Positions 6,321 to 17,507 of a stretch of 62,927 nt of DNA are shown in pieces; the stretch's first letter is position 1; each line of letters starts with the position of its first letter. The position numbers were made by a program, and so were the translations under genes. The DNA comes from Clostridium sp. (GTDB taxonomy: Bacteria; Bacillota; Clostridia; Lachnospirales; Lachnospiraceae): positions 1 to 62,927 of the forward strand of contig JAMPFF010000015.1 in NCBI GenBank assembly GCA_023664605.1. Direction: 5' to 3'. The notes beneath the pieces were generated by a model. It saw only the letters and a program-made list of their open reading frames with translations, did no database searches and was not told the origin of the DNA.

Positions 6321-6370
6321 TAGGTATACTATCGTATACCTATTATAGCAACAAGGTATACATATGTCAA
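6321..6370 (-). promoter_or_regulatory. blaI-M56 operon promoter with BlaI-type operator
   Basis: On the minus strand there is TTGACA (6365-6370), a 17-nt spacer and TATAAT (6342-6347), both full consensus. Right after the -10 lies a perfect dyad, TAGGTATAC-N4-GTATACCTA (6321-6342). A further half-site, AAGGTATAC, lies in the spacer. The placement would block RNA polymerase and fits autorepression by BlaI. Confidence 0.75.
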
Positions 6371-9311: not shown

Positions 9312-10364
9312 ATGAGTTATCAGAAAAAAATTGCTGTAGTATTTGGCGACTGCTCGCCGGAATACAGCGTTTCACTTCAATCTGCATATGCAGTTATCAA
9401 TCATATGGACAAGCAAAAGTATATTCCTGTCTTGATAGGTATCACGAGACAGGGCGACTGGCGCTTATTCAACGGTAATTATCAGGAAATCATATCCGAT
9501 ACATGGTATCATGCGGATTCTTGTATGCCTGTTGCTGTTTCTCCAAGCCGTTCTGACCACGCATTATTATGTTACACAGACGAGGGCATCAACAAAATCC
9601 CTATTGACGCCGCTTTTCCTGTTTTACATGGAAAGAATGGTGAGGACGGTACAGTACAGGGAATATTTGAACTTGCGGGTATTCCCGTTATAGGCTGTGG
9701 AGTTGTTTCCTCTGCTTTGTGCATGGATAAAGACAGGGCGCATAAACTTGTGCAAGCCGCCGGAATTGCTGTTCCAAAATCTTACGTTCTTACAAAAAGT
9801 ATGGACGCCCGGATAGCTTTATCATGGGCGGAAACAATCGGTTATCCCCTGTTTGTTAAACCTGTAAAAGCAGGCTCGTCTTTTGGCGTAACAAAGGTAT
9901 CAGACTGCAATGCGTTACCTATCGCCATAAAACAGGCTTTTCAATATGATGATAACGTGATTATTGAGGAAAATATAGAGGGATTTGAAGTTGGCTGCGC
10001 TGTTATGGGAACCGATATTTTGACGATTGGCGAAGTTGATGAAATTGAACTTGCAGACGGTTTTTTCGATTATACAGAAAAATACAGTCTCAAAACTTCT
10101 TCTATCCATGTTCCTGCAAGAATTAGCAAGGGTAAACGAAATCAAATTCGGCTGACGGCACAAAAAATTTACAGGGCGTTAGATTGTCGTTGTTTTGCGC
10201 GTGTTGATATGTTTTTATCTACCTCTGGGGAAATTGTGTTTAACGAAGTGAATACCATCCCGGGTTTTACCTTACATAGCCGTTTTCCCAATATGATGAA
10301 AGCGGAAGGGTTTTCATTTGAGCAGATAATAGAAAATGCGATTGAACAGGCGGTGAAAGCATGA
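9312..10364 (+). CDS. vanG: VanG-type D-alanine--D-serine ligase
   Basis: A 350-residue ATP-grasp ligase of the Ddl/Van family. Visible motifs are FPVLHGKNGEDGTVQG (substrate loop), GYPLFVKPVKAGSSFGV (nucleotide binding), FFDYTEKYSLK (omega loop, Tyr254 and Tyr258) and FNEVNTIPGFT (metal and phosphate binding). VanA/VanB-type D-lactate ligases have a His in place of the omega-loop Tyr, so the Tyr supports D-Ala or D-Ser use. The operon partners vanXY and vanT, a serine racemase, settle it as D-Ala-D-Ser, giving low-level glycopeptide resistance with weaker effect on teicoplanin in known cases. AAGGAG precedes the ATG; the stop overlaps the vanXY ATG. Confidence 0.93.
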   Translation: MSYQKKIAVVFGDCSPEYSVSLQSAYAVINHMDKQKYIPVLIGITRQGDWRLFNGNYQEIISDTWYHADSCMPVAVSPSRSDHALLCYTDEGINKIPIDAAFPVLHGKNGEDGTVQGIFELAGIPVIGCGVVSSALCMDKDRAHKLVQAAGIAVPKSYVLTKSMDARIALSWAETIGYPLFVKPVKAGSSFGVTKVSDCNALPIAIKQAFQYDDNVIIEENIEGFEVGCAVMGTDILTIGEVDEIELADGFFDYTEKYSLKTSSIHVPARISKGKRNQIRLTAQKIYRALDCRCFARVDMFLSTSGEIVFNEVNTIPGFTLHSRFPNMMKAEGFSFEQIIENAIEQAVKA

Positions 10365-11116
10365 TAAGCGTTACTCTGCCGCATCATCTGATATACACAG
10401 GCAATTTAATTTTAGTAAATGCTCGTTATCCATATCGGGAAAATATCATATCAAATACATTAATGCCAGTTAATTCTGATAGCGATGAGATTTTACTTGA
10501 CTGCCGTGCCGAAAAAGCCCTCAAAAGTCTTATAAATCACATGGGGAAGTGGGAACAGATTGTTCCCGTAAGCGGCTGGCGGTCTATGCACGAGCAATAT
10601 GAAATTTATAAAAACTCATTAAAAGATAACGGGAAAGAATTTACTGAAAAATTTGTCGCCCTCCCCGGTCACAGTGAACACCAAACAGGGCTGGCGATTG
10701 ACCTTGCCTTACGGCAGGAGCAAATTGATTTTATCTGCCCGGACTTCCCCTATACAGGAATATGTCAAGTGTTTCGGCAAAACGCGGCGTCTTATGGATT
10801 TATTGAACGTTATCCGAATGATAAGGAGCAGATTACAGGTATTGCACATGAGCCGTGGCATTTTCGTTATGTAGGCATACCCCATGCTGAAATTATAAAA
10901 AAGTATGATTTTGCATTGGAGGAATACATTTCCTTTTTGGCAAAATACCCCTGTCAAAAATCACCGTATGTTTACCAAGGAAAAGCGGGATATATAGAAA
11001 TTTCCTATTTGAAAGCGGAGGCAGAAAATACACTGCTTGACATTAATGGAGGCAGCGCATTTGCTGTTTCCGGCAACAACATAGACGGATTCATTATTAC
11101 TGAGTGGAGGACATAG
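10361..11116 (+). CDS. vanXY: VanXY-type D,D-dipeptidase/D,D-carboxypeptidase
   Basis: A 251-residue M15-family zinc peptidase. The family signature SxHxxGxAxD reads SEHQTGLAID (His107, Asp114), and EPWHFRYVG supplies the catalytic Glu164 and third ligand His167. Like the VanXY proteins, it lacks a membrane anchor and should act in the cytoplasm, cutting D-Ala-D-Ala dipeptide and removing terminal D-Ala from UDP-MurNAc-pentapeptide. The ATG overlaps the vanG stop codon (ATGA). No separate vanY is present, so this enzyme would cover both activities. Confidence 0.92.
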   Translation: MISVTLPHHLIYTGNLILVNARYPYRENIISNTLMPVNSDSDEILLDCRAEKALKSLINHMGKWEQIVPVSGWRSMHEQYEIYKNSLKDNGKEFTEKFVALPGHSEHQTGLAIDLALRQEQIDFICPDFPYTGICQVFRQNAASYGFIERYPNDKEQITGIAHEPWHFRYVGIPHAEIIKKYDFALEEYISFLAKYPCQKSPYVYQGKAGYIEISYLKAEAENTLLDINGGSAFAVSGNNIDGFIITEWRT

Positions 11117-11117
11117 G

Positions 11118-13301
11118 ATGGAGGACAATAAAAACCTTGGAGGTTTGGACTTATTCAAAGTAATTGCCGCTTTTCTGGTAGTTGCTATACATACCGCGCC
11201 GCTATCTATCGTCAATGATAAAATTGATTTTCTGTTTACAGGAATTTTGGCGAGAATAGCCGTTCCATTTTTTCTTATGACAACAGGCTTCTTTCTTTTG
11301 CCGCAGTATTTATTTAAAAAATTAAGAGATTATTGTCCGTTTTGGCAATTTATAAAAAAGACATTCCTTTTATATATTATCGCAATCATAATTTATCTTC
11401 CGGTCAATTTATATGCAAAGCAGTTACGAGAAATCAGCTTTTTTGATTTTCTCCGTATGCTTATATTTGACGGTACTTTTTATCACTTATGGTATCTCCC
11501 CGCCGCCATACTCGGAACAATATTACTTGTTTTTGCAAGCCGAAAGCTGTCATATGAAATAATATTTGCCGTTACTCTTGTTCTTTACTGTTTTGGTTTA
11601 CTTGGAGACAGCTACTATGGATTTATTTCAAACGGCAGTATACTCCATACGATTTATCAATCTATGTTTCAAGTATTTTCCTACACCAGAAATGGAATTT
11701 TCTATACTCCTGTTTTTCTTGTTATGGGAGCGGGTATAAAATATAAATACAAATTACATTATCCTGCGGGAATTACTTGCGGATTTATTATCTCTGTTTT
11801 ATTGATGATTTTTGAAGGACTGACTCTCAATCATTTAGGTGTACAGCGTCACGATAGTATGTATATTGCTTTACTGCCTGTCTCCTTTTTCCTGTTCCAA
11901 GCAATATTACAAGTCAAAGCCAAACCCGGAAAATCATTACGAACTATTTCGACTTGGATATACATTCTCCACCCTCTGTTTATTATTTTAATAAGAGGCG
12001 CGGCAAAAATGACCCATACCGAAGCATGGCTGATTGAAAATAGTTTGATACACTATTTAGCGGTCTGCTTGTTATCCATTATTTTTGCTGCGTTTCTACA
12101 GAAGATTTTGCTGTATATAAAGCCGCATATAAAGCATAATTTATTCCCGCGAGAACTTTGGCTTGTGGTACATAAGACAAATATCACGAAAGACAGGGCA
12201 TGGATTGAACTTGATATGAAAAACCTGCGTGAAAATGTTCACGCCTTGGAAAGCCTGTTACCACAGGATTGTAAACTTATGCCTGTCGTAAAAGCAGACG
12301 CATACGGTCACGGAGCCGTTTCCATTTCAAAAGAATTAAATCGGTTAGGAGTCAACTCCTTTTGTGTTGCTGCTATATCAGAGGGGATAACTTTACGCCA
12401 AAATGGTATTAAAGGCGATATTCTAATCTTAGGCTATACGCATCCTGATTGTTTTCCCCTGTTAAGAAAATACCGCCTGACTCAATCCGTAATTGATTTT
12501 TCATATGCCCGGCTTTTAAATTCTTATGGCAGGAAGATAAAGGTACACATAAAAATTGATACAGGTATGCGCCGATTAGGAGAACGGGCAGAAAGAATAA
12601 AAGAAATATGTCAAATTTTTCATTGTGAAAATCTTATCATAGAAGGAATTTATACCCACCTATGCGCTGATGAAACGAAAACAGAACCCAATAGAGCTTT
12701 TACTTTAAAACAAGCGCACAGTTTCTTTGATGTTATTTCAGAATTGAAAGCTCATGGCTATATCTGCAAAAAGATACATCTATTGGCAAGTTACGGTCTT
12801 ATAAATTACCCGGAATATGCGGGAAACTATGCAAGAGTGGGAATTGCCCTTTATGGTGTTTTGAGCAGCCGTACTGATATAAAGAACTGTCCGATAAGCT
12901 TATATCCCGTTCTTTCCGTAAAAGCGCGTATCGCACTTACAAAAGACTTATATGCAGGGGAAACGGCAGGATATGGATTGCAGTATACAGCGAAAAGCGA
13001 TAAGAAAATAGCCGTTTTATCAATCGGATATGCGGACGGCATTCCCCGTTCCCTTTCCTGCGAAAATGGAAAAGTTTTGATAAATGGAGCAAATGCGCCT
13101 GTTATTGGACAAATTTGTATGGACCAAATGCTGGTAGATATTACAGACATCCCAAATGTGAAAAGTGGTGATATTGCTGTCATCATCGGTAAATCCGGGC
13201 AAAAAGAAATTACGGCTTATGACCTTGCAGAAAAAAGTGGAACGATTACAAATGAAATATTATCCCGTTTAGGCGCTCGTTTAAGCAGAATACCATTGTA
13301 A
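11118..13301 (+). CDS. vanT: VanT-type membrane-bound serine racemase
   Basis: A 727-residue two-domain protein. Residues 1-~335 form a multi-pass acyltransferase-3-like membrane domain (FKVIAAFLVVAIHTAPLS at the start), thought to bring in or present L-serine. Residues ~355-727 are an alanine-racemase fold with the PLP lysine Lys392 in MPVVKADAYGHG, plus IDTGMRRLG and YAGNYARVGIALYG. It supplies D-serine to VanG. It starts 1 nt after the vanXY stop. Its last codons run into a relic of a blaI gene (13294-13340), so the natural C-terminus may have been slightly altered. Confidence 0.92.
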   Translation: MEDNKNLGGLDLFKVIAAFLVVAIHTAPLSIVNDKIDFLFTGILARIAVPFFLMTTGFFLLPQYLFKKLRDYCPFWQFIKKTFLLYIIAIIIYLPVNLYAKQLREISFFDFLRMLIFDGTFYHLWYLPAAILGTILLVFASRKLSYEIIFAVTLVLYCFGLLGDSYYGFISNGSILHTIYQSMFQVFSYTRNGIFYTPVFLVMGAGIKYKYKLHYPAGITCGFIISVLLMIFEGLTLNHLGVQRHDSMYIALLPVSFFLFQAILQVKAKPGKSLRTISTWIYILHPLFIILIRGAAKMTHTEAWLIENSLIHYLAVCLLSIIFAAFLQKILLYIKPHIKHNLFPRELWLVVHKTNITKDRAWIELDMKNLRENVHALESLLPQDCKLMPVVKADAYGHGAVSISKELNRLGVNSFCVAAISEGITLRQNGIKGDILILGYTHPDCFPLLRKYRLTQSVIDFSYARLLNSYGRKIKVHIKIDTGMRRLGERAERIKEICQIFHCENLIIEGIYTHLCADETKTEPNRAFTLKQAHSFFDVISELKAHGYICKKIHLLASYGLINYPEYAGNYARVGIALYGVLSSRTDIKNCPISLYPVLSVKARIALTKDLYAGETAGYGLQYTAKSDKKIAVLSIGYADGIPRSLSCENGKVLINGANAPVIGQICMDQMLVDITDIPNVKSGDIAVIIGKSGQKEITAYDLAEKSGTITNEILSRLGARLSRIPL

Positions 13302-13340
13302 TAATGATGTGCTTATCCCATCTGGTATCTTCCTATACGC
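13294..13340 (-). pseudogene. fragment of a second blaI-like gene at the end of vanT
   Basis: Read on the minus strand, this stretch encodes RWDKHIIITM, the same recognition-helix peptide as the intact BlaI (GWDKHIIITM). Most of the DNA differences are silent, and the frame stops just upstream. Similarity ends abruptly at 13294, inside the last vanT codons. It marks a recombination junction at the right end of the van cluster. Confidence 0.55.
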
Positions 13341-13383
13341 AGATATTCAACCAAAAAGGGGACTAAAAACTGTGAAGATTTAT

Positions 13384-13412
13384 TTGACATATTTTATGCC
13401 ATTTCATATAAT
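13384..13412 (+). promoter_or_regulatory. consensus promoter for the type III antitoxin RNA
   Basis: TTGACA (13384-13389), a 17-nt spacer and TATAAT (13407-13412) are both full consensus. Transcription would start near 13419, about 20 nt before the first 46-bp repeat. Confidence 0.85.
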
Positions 13413-13439
13413 ACTATCAGAGACGGAGCAATCCGCCAT

Positions 13440-13531
13440 CGAAAATATTGTTCGCACACCGTTTGCGACTAATAAATGTACGGCTCGAAAATATTGTTCG
13501 CTTACCGGAAGCGTCTAATAAATGTCCGGCA
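13440..13531 (+). ncRNA. type III toxin-antitoxin RNA antitoxin: two 46-bp tandem repeats
   Basis: Unit 1 is 13440-13485 and unit 2 is 13486-13531; a partial third unit begins at 13532. They share CGAAAATATTGTTCGC at the start and CTAATAAATGT near the end. Between these, each forms a small hairpin whose arms change together: TCGCA/TGCGA in unit 1, CGCTT/AAGCG in unit 2. A strong promoter lies before and a terminator plus toxin gene after, the layout of ToxIN/CptIN loci, in which the toxin cuts the transcript into repeat-length RNAs that then inhibit it. I recall that the CptI repeat of Eubacterium rectale is about 45 nt, close to 46. Confidence 0.78.
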
Positions 13532-13540
13532 TGAAAATTC

Positions 13541-13590
13541 AGCCTTATCGCCTGGGTGATACTATCGCTTATGTGATAAGGCTATTTTTA
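13541..13590 (+). terminator. terminator between antitoxin repeats and toxin gene
   Basis: AGCCTTATC (13541-13549) pairs with GATAAGGCT (13575-13583), followed by ATTTTTA. In type III systems such a terminator sets the excess of RNA antitoxin over toxin mRNA. It probably also ends van operon read-through. Confidence 0.8.
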
Positions 13591-13602
13591 CGGAGAAAAA
13601 TT

Positions 13603-13995
13603 ATGACTTATCAGAAAGGATATGTTTATCATATTAAAGATGAATATTTTATAAAAGCAAACGATCCCAACCTCATGCAAAATAAGGAAAACGGCAATTA
13701 CCGCCCAACTTTCTACTGTATGCGTGATGAAAAGACATCCTTGCTTTGGCTGGTTCCCCTTAGCAGCCGTGTTGAAAAATTTCAGATGATTTATGATAAA
13801 CAAATTGAAAAATATCTCGACCATATCCATACCCGCAACAATAATCCCGTCCCTGTTAAATACTCTATACAAACGGAAATAAGCACAAAGATGAAACGCA
13901 TTCTACAGCTTCATGCCCGTGGGAAAAAAATTGTTTTTCCCGATATCTCAAGGCTTGAAAATCTAATGTTAAAAGAAACCATGTCCGCCAACTAA
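13603..13995 (+). CDS. type III toxin, CptN/ToxN-like endoribonuclease (possibly internally deleted)
   Basis: A 130-residue protein starting at the ATG that has CGGAG 8 nt upstream; the frame is open further upstream but would run through the terminator. The N-terminal part, KGYVYHIKDEYF, NGNYRPTFYC and LLWLVPLSSRVEKF, has the feel of the CptN branch of type III toxins: a small beta-barrel RNase using the Ser-Ser-Arg region. The call rests as much on context, since promoter, tandem repeats and terminator lie directly upstream. As I remember the family, members are about 150-170 residues, with roughly 30 residues between the SSR motif and HIHT. Here IEKYLDHIHT follows closely, so an internal deletion may have weakened the toxin. 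No catalytic residue is proven by this reading. Confidence 0.68.
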   Translation: MTYQKGYVYHIKDEYFIKANDPNLMQNKENGNYRPTFYCMRDEKTSLLWLVPLSSRVEKFQMIYDKQIEKYLDHIHTRNNNPVPVKYSIQTEISTKMKRILQLHARGKKIVFPDISRLENLMLKETMSAN

Positions 13996-13997
13996 AC

Positions 13998-14732
13998 TCA
14001 CGGCGCGCCCGCGTTCCAAACCGCCACATCCACAATCCAGACCGGCTTTTCACCCTCTGCAGACTGCCTCATCATCGGAATCGTAATTTCGCTGCCGTCC
14101 GCGAAGTGGTAGCGCACCATGGATTGACCGGTCATATCGCTCTTTGCGCTGTCCTCTCCCTCTCCGCCTGTCAGGTTGAGGATATGCACGGCAGCCGTCA
14201 CCGGTTCTTCATATACGGTATTATCCACGGCGGATGTGCCATTTTCATTTTGATAAATAATGGCGTCGGCAAAACCGTTTTCTATATAGTCAACAAATTT
14301 ATACTCCTCCTGAATCCGATACGCTTTGTCAAATTCCTCTTTAGAAGAAATGCTGTCCATATATTCCAGATTCCCGTCCGCCAGCCGGTATTCTCCGCCG
14401 TCTCTGATATAGTATTTTTCCTCTTTCCAGACGGTAATATGCGGGTCGGACGTCCACGCGTAATACCATATATCCGCCTTTTCGTTCTCCCAATCAATCC
14501 TATAACGGTACGAGTCCGCTATCGCCGCGCCGTCTCTATTGCAGAAAGCTTCTGCATAATTTTCAATTAATGCCGCAATTTTCTCCTGTTCCTCTGTTGA
14601 CGGATAGGATGCTGTCTTTTTATCCGCAGAGTGAAGCATAAGCCCCACAGCTACAAGTATAGCCGCAACAGCCCCCACCGCCGCGACAATCACGGCAAAA
14701 GGTTTATTTTTTATCATCGTTTTTCTTTTCAT
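13998..14732 (-). CDS. signal-anchored extracellular protein of unknown function
   Basis: I do not recognise a named family. The chosen start (GGGAG 8 nt before the ATG) gives 244 residues: a short basic N-terminus, one hydrophobic segment (FAVIVAAVGAVAAILVAVGL), then an acidic outer domain beginning with EEQEKIAALIENYAEAFCNRDGAAI. That opening resembles the NTF2-like/SnoaL folds that begin with a helix and a count of residues, but this is only a guess. It sits downstream of and convergent to the type III toxin. A longer frame starting five codons upstream lacks a ribosome binding site. Confidence 0.55.
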   Translation of the reverse strand: MKRKTMIKNKPFAVIVAAVGAVAAILVAVGLMLHSADKKTASYPSTEEQEKIAALIENYAEAFCNRDGAAIADSYRYRIDWENEKADIWYYAWTSDPHITVWKEEKYYIRDGGEYRLADGNLEYMDSISSKEEFDKAYRIQEEYKFVDYIENGFADAIIYQNENGTSAVDNTVYEEPVTAAVHILNLTGGEGEDSAKSDMTGQSMVRYHFADGSEITIPMMRQSAEGEKPVWIVDVAVWNAGAP

Positions 14733-14775
14733 TAGGAAAACTCCCATTCATCTATAAGTGAGTTTTTGATTCTAT

Positions 14776-16017
14776 CTAAGAATAACAGATTTCCCCCTGA
14801 AACGCCACTTTTTTCTGCCCCTGCTTTATCACGCCGATTTCATAGCAGTCGTAATACTCTTTGACCTTATCCTCCACCGCTTTTTTATCCCCGGCGGAAA
14901 CCACGATAATCAGACCGACGCCGCAGTTAAAGGTGGAAAGCATCTCTTCCTGTCCGATGTTTCCCGTTTTTTGGATAAAGTCAAAAATAGGCAGCGGTTT
15001 TATCAGGCTTAAATCAATCTGCGCGCATAAACCATCCGGTATAATGCGGCACAGGTTTCCTTCGATTCCGCCGCCCGTAATATGCGCCATGCCATGCGCT
15101 TTGTCCGCTATCTTTTTTACCGCCTTATAATACGGCGTATGCACTTTCATAATCTGCTCGATAAAAGTTTGTCCCGCTACTTTTTCCAATTTTATCTGTG
15201 GTATTTTATCCATCAGCATTCTGACAAGGGAATAACCGTTCGTATGCAGTCCGTTAGAAGCGACCGCTAATACCGCGTCGCCCTCTTTTATCTTAGTGCC
15301 GTCTACTATTTTCTCTTTGGATATGATGCCCGCGATACTGGACGTGAGAATATAAACGCCTTTTTCCACGACCTGCGGCTGGATGGACGTCTCGCCGCCT
15401 ACAAGCGCGCACTCATTTTCCTTACACGCCTCGGAGATTCCCTTGACAAAAGATTTTATCGTTTCTTTTTCCGCGTTGCCGCAGACAACCGTATCCAATA
15501 CCGCCAGCGGCTTTGCGCCCATGACCGCGATATCGTTTACCAGATGGTTAATCATATCATGACAGATGGATTCGCAGTAACCGTATTCCATGGCAAGTTT
15601 CTGTTTGGAACCCGGCTCCTCCGCCTTTAATACCAGTACCGGCTCGGCTATTTCGGGAAAATCTATATTGTACAAGGACGCAAAAGCGCCGAACCCGTTT
15701 AATACGCGCTTATCCTCCGTCTGCAGATAGACTGACATTTCCTTTTTCATGGCGTCCGTATAGGAAATGTCAACGCCCGCTTTCCGGTATGAAAAGTTTT
15801 CGCCGCTTTTTTCCTGTCCGGCAAGAATTTCATCCACGCTGACGTGTAAAAGCGCTGCCAGCTCCACCAATGTCTCCACGTTAGGCAGCGTGCCGTTTTC
15901 CCATTTTGATACCGCCTGAAAAGATACCTGTAAACTCTCCGCCACTTCCGACTGCGTCATTCCGAGTTCTTTTCTCTTACCCACAATAAAATCCGCAATT
16001 TTCCTGTTATCCAGCAT
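14776..16017 (-). CDS. purM: XRE-type HTH domain fused to PurM-like AIR synthetase
   Basis: From the ATG with AAAGGAG 9 nt upstream this is a 413-residue protein; the frame is open 19 codons further but without a binding site. Residues 1-~62 are a Cro/CI-type helix-turn-helix (GMTQSEVAESLQVSFQAVSKWENG). Residues ~75-413 are an AIR synthetase (PurM) fold: YRKAGVDISY, DMINHLVNDIAVMGAKPL, LVGGETSIQP, ASNGLHTNGYSLVR, HITGGGIEGN and NCGVGL. PurM closes the imidazole ring of AIR in purine synthesis using ATP. No other purine genes are adjacent. The domain fusion suggests the enzyme, or its ligand state, may control transcription, but this is inference. Confidence 0.82.
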   Translation of the reverse strand: MLDNRKIADFIVGKRKELGMTQSEVAESLQVSFQAVSKWENGTLPNVETLVELAALLHVSVDEILAGQEKSGENFSYRKAGVDISYTDAMKKEMSVYLQTEDKRVLNGFGAFASLYNIDFPEIAEPVLVLKAEEPGSKQKLAMEYGYCESICHDMINHLVNDIAVMGAKPLAVLDTVVCGNAEKETIKSFVKGISEACKENECALVGGETSIQPQVVEKGVYILTSSIAGIISKEKIVDGTKIKEGDAVLAVASNGLHTNGYSLVRMLMDKIPQIKLEKVAGQTFIEQIMKVHTPYYKAVKKIADKAHGMAHITGGGIEGNLCRIIPDGLCAQIDLSLIKPLPIFDFIQKTGNIGQEEMLSTFNCGVGLIIVVSAGDKKAVEDKVKEYYDCYEIGVIKQGQKKVAFQGEICYS

Positions 16018-16169
16018 GATAAACTCCTTTCGCTTTATTACAGTTAGCGTACCATTTATCACATTCCGCCGCAATAACCGGATATTTGAAATTCATATAT
16101 AAACTCTACTCTGCGTTGAATTTTGTTCTAATCCCCATTCTGGAACATTTTCACGACGGGCGGCGAACC

Positions 16170-17507
16170 TTAAAATCTGACAATCTCCCCGTTTTTGATT
16201 TCTTTCGTAGAAGAAACAATCACCTGGCTTTCGCTGTCAAGCGCGCCCTCTACCGCCACCCAATAGTCGTTCTTATCCAAAACCCTGACGTTGACCTCTT
16301 CCACATAATATTCCATGCCGAGAATCCCTTCCCGCTCTTTCACCACATAGACATAGCTTCTGGTATTATCCGAATGCACTGCCAGCGGGGAAAGACAGCA
16401 ATTATATTTTTCCCCCGTCTCCGAGTGTTTCATGGTGCCGGACAAGCCGGGCATTCCCGTACCCTCCGGCAGATTAATATAGATATTGTAGCTGCCGGGC
16501 ATCGTTTCGCTCTCCGAAAGGTAATCAACGGTCATCTCGTTTTCCCTGCTGCTGCCGTCAAGTTTTAACGATACCTTATCATTTAAGCCTACATATTTTT
16601 TCTGCTCTTTATCAATCATGGTCTTAAACTGACAGGGAACCTCGTCATCGGCAAGTAACATCACCGCCGAATCGGGAATCCTGCCGCCCACGCTGATATA
16701 GACGTCCGTTACCAGCCCGCTTCGCTCCGCTGCAATCTGACCCTCTAAATCCTTAATCTCCTGATATTTTGCTAAATCCTCCCGCAGTTCTGCAAGTTCC
16801 ATCTGATAACCGGACAATGCAGCGTCCACATCCTCAGGCAGCAGAATATCTTCTACTTTTCTTCCCGCGTCTTTCATACTGTTTTCCCGCTGCCATTTCG
16901 CGTCCGCTTCCGCATATGCCGCCGACTGCAACGCTTCCTCTAACGCCTGTTTTACGGCTTCGTCCTCTTCGCTCCAGTGTTCCCCCTTTTCCTCCTGTAT
17001 CTCTATCTGCGCTTCCAATTCATGCTCCGCTTTGTTGACCTCTTCCGCCGCTCTGCCGACCAGCGTATCTTCGTATTTTGCCAGCGCGTCATAATCTTCT
17101 CTGGCTCGCGCCTCCTCCAATTCTTTTTTCTGGCTCGCCAGTTCTTTATTCTGCAAAATAGTATCAACCTGCGTCTGCACCTTGGCTATCTGCGTCTGCT
17201 TCTCCTCCATAATGGCGTTTAAATCTTCCATATCCACGCTAAAAAGCGCGTCTCCCTCTTCTATCCTGTCGCCCACCTGCACCATCACTTTATCTATCCG
17301 CAGTCCGCTAAGCGCCGTCACCGGAACTTTATCTCCGGCAATGACAATCCCCTCCGCCTCCACGATATGCTCTATATACTTCTGGTCTATCTTCTCCACG
17401 GAGACAACCGGCAGTCTGGAAGCGTATATGCTCTTGGATATCACCGTGCAAAGCCACATAAAGCCCATGAATATCAAAAAACCCGCGATAATTTTCTTTT
17501 TTCTCAT
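16170..17507 (-). CDS. HlyD-like membrane fusion (adaptor) protein
   Basis: A 445-residue protein with an N-terminal membrane anchor (residues ~6-26), then a barrel and lipoyl-type half (GIVIAGDKVPVTALSGLRIDKV, VGDRIEEGDALFSVD), a long helical hairpin of about residues 98-260 rich in E, K, A and Q, the second lipoyl half (GLVTDVYISVGGRIPD), and a C-terminal beta domain. This is the plan of HlyD/RND adaptors. No ABC or RND pump stands beside it; it follows the sugar ABC permease genes in the same direction after 142 nt, with a hairpin element between. Whether it works with those permeases or with a pump elsewhere is not decided by the sequence. Confidence 0.7.
   Translation of the reverse strand: MRKKKIIAGFLIFMGFMWLCTVISKSIYASRLPVVSVEKIDQKYIEHIVEAEGIVIAGDKVPVTALSGLRIDKVMVQVGDRIEEGDALFSVDMEDLNAIMEEKQTQIAKVQTQVDTILQNKELASQKKELEEARAREDYDALAKYEDTLVGRAAEEVNKAEHELEAQIEIQEEKGEHWSEEDEAVKQALEEALQSAAYAEADAKWQRENSMKDAGRKVEDILLPEDVDAALSGYQMELAELREDLAKYQEIKDLEGQIAAERSGLVTDVYISVGGRIPDSAVMLLADDEVPCQFKTMIDKEQKKYVGLNDKVSLKLDGSSRENEMTVDYLSESETMPGSYNIYINLPEGTGMPGLSGTMKHSETGEKYNCCLSPLAVHSDNTRSYVYVVKEREGILGMEYYVEEVNVRVLDKNDYWVAVEGALDSESQVIVSSTKEIKNGEIVRF

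What the first reader, a model, noticed from the sequence alone, without database searches (positions are those of the whole stretch)
13384..13995. Complete type III toxin-antitoxin locus (CptIN-like) directly behind the vanG operon
Four parts line up: consensus promoter with 17-nt spacer, two 46-bp repeats whose internal hairpin arms change in a compensating way, a terminator, and a small basic protein with CptN/ToxN-like strings. Type III loci are uncommon, and one placed between a resistance operon and core genes could help stabilise or defend the region.
Basis: partly seen in the sequence, partly recalled or inferred. Interest (0 to 1): 0.75.

Follow-up and report, generated by a model that had tools for sequence, protein, structure and literature searches.

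The report
CptIN toxin-antitoxin with broken toxin
Behind a vancomycin-resistance (vanG) operon sits a known kind of bacterial toxin-antitoxin locus whose RNA antitoxin half looks intact but whose toxin gene has lost a 30-residue piece of its core, so it is most likely a decaying remnant rather than a working guardian of the resistance genes.

Summary
Relatives share the layout, and 88 distinct repeat units covary in both stems of an H-type pseudoknot, so this is a type III locus of the CptIN family. It is not complete. Intact relatives encode about 159 residues; the window lacks 30 consecutive ones between two short direct repeats, an in-frame 90-nt deletion. The lost segment aligns to residues 69-99 of crystallised CptN: five family-invariant residues, three RNA-pocket positions, two active-site positions. 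A sister genome (G037) has the same chromosomal site with a different toxin lesion, one repeat, no promoter and no vanG, so both decayed separately from an intact ancestor. The same deletion recurs in two other genomes. Of 66 near loci counted (window included), 18 have broken toxins; in the genus, 9 of 15 matching sites lack an intact toxin. vanG adjacency was seen nowhere else. Best reading: a decaying CptIN locus, antitoxin perhaps still expressed; nothing supports stabilisation or defence of vanG. No expression data; structure prediction could not be run.

The parts
13384..13412 (+). sigma-70 type promoter of cptI, TTGACA-17-TATAAT
   Evidence: 12 of 12 consensus positions; strict TTGACA/TATAAT found upstream in 36 of 44 intact and 10 of 16 broken near relatives that had 320 nt upstream
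13439..13484 (+). CptI repeat 1; stem 1 13453-13456 with 13464-13467 (13457/13463 is C/U, unpaired), pseudoknot stem 2 13459-13462 with 13480-13483
   Evidence: repeat; covariation over 88 units
13485..13530 (+). CptI repeat 2; stem 1 13499-13503 with 13509-13513, pseudoknot stem 2 13505-13508 with 13526-13529
   Evidence: 85% identical to repeat 1; 46 of 46 identical to the repeat kept in sister genome G037
13541..13583 (+). terminator hairpin between antitoxin and toxin
   Evidence: inverted repeat; fold -24.7 kcal/mol, z -6.1
13592..13595 (+). likely ribosome-binding site GGAG, 7 nt before the ATG
   Evidence: read from the sequence
13603..13995 (+). cptN, internally deleted toxin gene, 130 codons (intact relatives about 155-165)
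   Evidence: NCBIfam NF047359 122.3 bits, cut-off 90, in two stretches; intact relatives 195 and 194 bits in one stretch
13807..13815 (+). deletion junction: the one remaining copy of the short direct repeat; 90 nt are missing here
   Evidence: comparison with intact relatives L001, L003, L010 and with L004, L083
6512..13301 (+). neighbour, not part of the locus: vanG-type operon (vanR, vanS, vanW, vanG, vanXY, vanT)
   Evidence: NCBIfam: VanG 549 bits (cut-off 495), VanT-G C-term 561 (460), VanW 417 (365), VanR 381 (350); VanS 380 (400) and VanXY 271 (500) and 223 (250) fall below their cut-offs

Best explanation
This is a CptIN-family type III toxin-antitoxin locus in decay. In intact relatives (mechanism from the E. 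rectale system, PMC4627078) the CptN endoribonuclease cuts the tandem CptI transcript into single pseudoknot units that then lock two toxins into an inactive ring. In the window the antitoxin half (promoter, two pseudoknot repeats, terminator) is intact, but cptN lost 90 nt in frame, very probably by recombination or slippage between two 8-9 nt direct repeats. The product keeps the Ser-Ser-Arg motif (S54-S55-R56) but lacks the central 30 residues, so it most likely cannot fold into the RNase, cut RNA or process CptI. The locus therefore gives no addiction, stabilisation or defence; the CptI RNA may still be made. Shown: anatomy, family, deletion, separate decay in the sister genome. Inferred: loss of activity, route of deletion, expression.
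For: Family. Pseudoknot covariation. Deletion against intact relatives; the segment holds 5 residues invariant in 29 sequences and aligns to CptN_Er 69-99, which includes Ile73, Ile74, Leu88 (RNA pocket) and Asp81, Ser85 (active site) as named in PMC4627078. Sister genome G037 at the same chromosomal site (94.7% identity over 4530 aligned columns downstream) keeps part of the segment that the window lost but has a 1-nt frameshift, another internal deletion, one repeat and no promoter: the common ancestor was full length. Decay is frequent: 18 of 66 near loci; 9 of 15 matching sites in the genus without intact toxin.
Against: The frame, start codon and ribosome-binding site are intact; the protein still passes the NCBIfam cut-off and keeps S-S-R and the H76 position that aligns with Tyr104. 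The same in-frame deletion occurs in L004 and L083, and two further relatives, L045 and L068, have other in-frame deletions there, which could hint at a selected short form (tblastn, however, shows in-frame deletions more readily than others). At the aligned Asp81 and Ser85 positions the intact relatives of this subfamily have other residues (G84, A87 in L003), so catalysis there may differ in detail. cptN is 99% identical to G037 over 304 columns against 94.7% for the flank. No structure model could be made (11 attempts, machine busy).
Confidence: 0.85

Rival explanations
1. Working TA: the 130-aa protein is a functional short CptN and the locus is complete.
For: Open frame with start and Shine-Dalgarno; NCBIfam hit above cut-off; the same junction in L004 and L083; antitoxin intact.
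Against: The missing segment is among the most conserved of the family and carries RNA-pocket and active-site positions of CptN_Er. L083 has in addition lost about 35 N-terminal residues and one repeat. The sister locus is plainly dead by other lesions.
Confidence: 0.07
2. Solo antitoxin kept for its own sake: the dead-toxin locus still makes CptI, which protects the cell from cognate CptIN loci on incoming mobile DNA (anti-addiction).
For: Promoter, both repeats and terminator intact in the window; repeat 2 identical to that of the intact relative L007 (by eye); G033 has promoter plus two repeats and no cptN of this subfamily behind them.
Against: The antitoxin also decays in G037 (no promoter, one repeat), L055, L083, G012, G070, G064 and G032; an intact antitoxin is also expected if the toxin died recently or must die first. 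No fitness or expression data.
Confidence: 0.08
3. The deletion is an assembly artefact and the real locus is intact.
For: The genome is a 78-contig assembly; no reads could be checked.
Against: The repeats are only 8-9 nt, too short to mislead an assembler; the same junction occurs in two unrelated assemblies; the sister genome is broken too.
Confidence: 0.03

Closest known systems
CptIN of Eubacterium rectale (PDB 4RMO; PMC4627078)
   Same: Promoter-repeats-terminator-toxin layout; two repeats (45 nt there, 46 here); H-type pseudoknot with a one-base loop 1 and an A-rich loop 2; toxin homologous by profile (E 5e-31 for the intact relatives)
   Different: The window's toxin lacks 30 residues aligned to CptN_Er 69-99; repeat sequence differs; no activity shown here
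Intact CptIN loci of Lachnospiraceae such as L001, L003, L007, L010
   Same: About 94% identical toxin outside the gap (L003); two 46-nt repeats at the same spacing, promoter and terminator
   Different: Toxin about 159 aa and uninterrupted; other genomic neighbours, no vanG
G037 (locus L063/L090), same genus
   Same: Same chromosomal site and downstream genes; cptN 99% identical over 304 columns; repeat 2 identical
   Different: No vanG or vanT in the roughly 1.1 kb held upstream, promoter gone, one repeat, toxin frameshifted and deleted elsewhere

Membership tests
CptIN type III toxin-antitoxin (descent) | Toxin homologous to CptN | tested here: met
   NCBIfam NF047359 E 1.5e-35; PDB 4RMO E 6.5e-11
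CptIN type III toxin-antitoxin (descent) | Tandem repeats of about 45 nt directly upstream | tested here: met
   two 46-nt repeats; tandem repeats clearly present upstream in 83 of 87 homologous loci
CptIN type III toxin-antitoxin (descent) | Repeat folds as an H-type pseudoknot | tested here: met
   both stems supported by covariation over 88 units; structure itself not solved; no Rfam type III antitoxin model hit at E up to 1
CptIN type III toxin-antitoxin (descent) | Promoter before the repeats and terminator between antitoxin and toxin | tested here: met
CptIN type III toxin-antitoxin (working system) | Full-length toxin core with RNA pocket and active-site segment | tested here: not met
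   30 residues aligned to CptN_Er 69-99 missing
CptIN type III toxin-antitoxin (working system) | Toxin is an RNase that cuts CptI and arrests growth unless CptI is present | not testable with these tools
   needs expression; predicted lost
Resistance-island addiction module | TA conserved together with the resistance operon | tested here: not met
   no vanT match at any other cptIN locus held; of 77 genomes only the window's own covers vanT through to cptI

The most novel reading that the evidence does not exclude
A conserved pair of short direct repeats makes cptN prone to one particular in-frame deletion that disarms the toxin and leaves a live CptI antitoxin, so that gut Lachnospiraceae repeatedly turn an addiction module into an RNA-based immunity against related CptIN modules.
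Probability: 0.07. Interest if true: 0.55.

Novelty: new member of a known kind. Interest (0 to 1): 0.25.

Why it matters
It shows that a locus an annotation pipeline would name 'CptIN family toxin' (the shortened protein passes the curated cut-off) is most likely dead, and that type III loci in this genus are often in decay. That is a caution against inferring stabilisation of resistance genes from a neighbouring TA annotation. The recurrence of one deletion and the survival of antitoxin arrays without toxin make the 'toxin goes first' route of TA loss, and possible antitoxin-only immunity, testable in type III systems.

Tried and rejected
Rfam over 10000-17000 gave no type III antitoxin (one sub-threshold snoRNA hit taken as chance). 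Pfam gave only a sub-threshold hit and PADLOC none. Phage records: no match; viral contigs: 1 locus at 57%; plasmid records: 6, all under 60%; plasmid DNA search of the vanG region found other van regulators but no record covering 80% of the query. Single shared origin of the deletion: the set window+L004+L083 is rejected (p 1.65e-8) and window+G037+L004+L083 is rejected (p 7.5e-5), but window+G037+L004 (0.062), window+G037+L083 (0.060) and L004+L083 (0.154) are not. Because G037 keeps part of the segment, the window's deletion is its own; I claim at least two origins, probably three. The exact 9-mer stands at both ends in only 9 of 40 intact rows of the tree, and in G037 the left copy differs at its ninth base, so the repeat is 8-9 nt and not universal. 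A conserved rpsI-cptN neighbourhood for the genome's second locus: not found in other loci. Blower 2012 (recalled) was not held.

Rows dropped: loci under 60% ungapped identity, repeats of the same 200 nt, and L081 (the window again) were left out, and 1 locus cut by a contig end was not counted, repeated upstream regions were left out (91 distinct remained: 55 with two units, 5 with one, 31 with none by a window-like consensus, mostly other subfamilies with other repeat sequences); one search used the 87 distinct regions of at least 250 nt. In one search, two broken loci (L072, L083) had no upstream region on file.

Full report
Observation. All four parts are present. The promoter at 13384-13412 matches the consensus at 12 of 12 positions. 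Two adjacent 46-nt repeats lie at 13439-13530 and are 85% identical. A hairpin followed by a T run lies at 13541-13583 (-24.7 kcal/mol, z -6.1). A 130-codon gene starts at 13603 behind GGAG. The protein is CptIN family by NCBIfam (122.3 bits, cut-off 90) and is related to the crystallised CptN (4RMO, E 6.5e-11). Pfam and PADLOC give no usable hit and Rfam gives no antitoxin model. The operon in front is vanG-type: VanG, VanT-G C-term, VanW and VanR pass their cut-offs, VanS and VanXY fall below theirs.

Antitoxin. In 91 distinct upstream regions of homologous toxins, 55 carry two units of this repeat type at 46-nt spacing. By a consensus-free test, 83 of 87 regions have clear tandem repeats (identity 0.61 or more; maximum of 60 shuffles 0.57); L041 and L126 are marginal (0.58), L055 and L090 are below. 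The 88 distinct units fit an H-type pseudoknot. The pair at 18-26 (stem 1) and pairs 23-43 and 24-42 (stem 2) are kept through changes on both sides more often than in any of 1000 shuffles; pairs 14-30 and 19-25 are not supported; the others are nearly invariant. This agrees with the CptI_Er pseudoknot, which also comes from two genomic repeats (PMC4627078; I read parts 1 to 4 of 6).

Toxin. Intact close relatives encode about 159 residues. The window's protein aligns to them without gaps except for 30 consecutive residues missing in the middle (L003 positions 72-101). At the DNA level intact relatives carry a short direct repeat at both ends of this stretch, 90 nt apart, and the window keeps one copy. 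The lost stretch contains 5 residues that are invariant in 29 sequences (L90, Q92, N93, F95, P96). On the profile alignment it corresponds to CptN_Er 69-99 (counted by hand). The paper names Ile73, Ile74 and Leu88 as RNA-pocket residues and Asp81 and Ser85 as adenine-specifying active-site residues in that range. At the aligned Asp81 and Ser85 positions the intact relatives of this subfamily have Gly and Ala, so the detail of catalysis may differ. The Ser-Ser-Arg motif and the position aligned with Tyr104 (here His) remain. NCBIfam scores fall from 195 and 194 bits in two intact relatives to 122 here, still above the cut-off.

Timing and recurrence. G037 (loci L063, L090) is the sister of the window in a toxin-gene tree (99/100 support) and shares the chromosomal site: 94.7% identity over 4530 columns downstream. 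Its repeat is identical to the window's repeat 2 (46 of 46), but it has one repeat, no TTGACA/TATAAT promoter within 320 nt, no vanT in the roughly 1.1 kb held upstream, a 1-nt frameshift and a different internal deletion in cptN. It keeps part of what the window lost, so their ancestor was full length and each was broken on its own. The window's 90-nt deletion also occurs in L004 and L083; L083 has lost in addition about 35 N-terminal residues and one repeat. Tests against one origin are mixed (p 1.65e-8 and 7.5e-5 for two sets, 0.062, 0.060 and 0.154 for three others); at least two origins are needed because of G037. Distant L068 has a 123-nt in-frame deletion between a longer copy of the same kind of repeat, seen against L065.

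How common is decay. Of 66 distinct near loci not cut by a contig end (at least 60% ungapped identity, window included), 48 are intact and 18 broken. A DNA search of 77 genomes of the genus with promoter, repeats and start of terminator found 15 genomes with one site each. From: 6 have an intact toxin behind them (G003, G059, G071, G072, G075 and, of another subfamily, G004); 4 a broken toxin (the window, G014, G037, G057); 5 none or a scrap (G012, G032, G033, G064, G070). G033 has promoter and both repeats but no toxin of this subfamily in the next 1.5 kb; G032 has promoter and terminator but no repeats. A TA pair should lose its toxin first, since loss of the antitoxin alone would be harmful (established reasoning for TA pairs); the data fit that order, and they fit a recent loss equally well.

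Context. Window neighbours downstream occur next to cptIN only in G037 among the loci held, and vanT occurs next to cptIN only in the window. A vanT-to-promoter DNA query matched 14 of 77 genomes, but only the window's own genome over its full length; the rest are partial matches. The cptIN homology unit runs from about 13375 to about 13981, with different flanks elsewhere. So the juxtaposition with vanG looks accidental.

Verdict. [quoted passage not shown] ordinary TA decay beside a resistance operon. Other mechanisms (short active toxin, antitoxin-only immunity, assembly error) are less likely and are listed with tests. Literature: four searches were looked at as listings; PMC5086642 was seen in passages only. 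I saw no report of this deletion there, which is not proof that none exists.

Noticed in passing
L024, L036, L041, L126 (toxin side) and L151, L153, L154 (antitoxin side): In three genomes (G471, which gives the same result as G334; G472; G473) a mobile element sits inside the cptI terminator hairpin, so promoter and repeats lie at one end of the insert and an intact cptN at the other. Next to the antitoxin end in L153 is a large serine-recombinase-like protein (named by eye, no HMM run); the toxin side in L024 carries a CBASS-like set: cyclase 277 bits, E2 317 bits, 4TM effector 38 bits (PADLOC). An integration site between an antitoxin and its toxin would be worth a study.
   Followed up: partly
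L082 (window's own genome, contig C47, first 700 bases): A second CptIN-like locus (42% identity to the window protein over residues 5-65) with one CptI-like unit and a terminator, directly behind what reads as the end of rpsI, cut off by the contig end.
   Followed up: partly
L161 (G033:C36:10626-10793): Promoter, two CptI repeats and terminator followed not by cptN but by a P-loop NTPase-like gene (label by eye); another, about 46% identical CptN lies about 3.6 kb away in the same contig.
   Followed up: partly
L174 (G032:C25:25674-25742): cptI promoter and terminator without repeats now stand in front of a gene that reads like a choloylglycine hydrolase (label by eye): perhaps a borrowed promoter.
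   Followed up: no
window 14776-16074 (-): A 432-aa frame with an N-terminal HTH (RstR-like, below cut-off) followed by a PurM-like domain above its cut-off (259 bits, 236 needed), an unusual combination.
   Followed up: no
window 6342-6370 (-): A second perfect TTGACA-17-TATAAT between the blaI-like gene and vanR, pointing towards the blaI-like gene.
   Followed up: no
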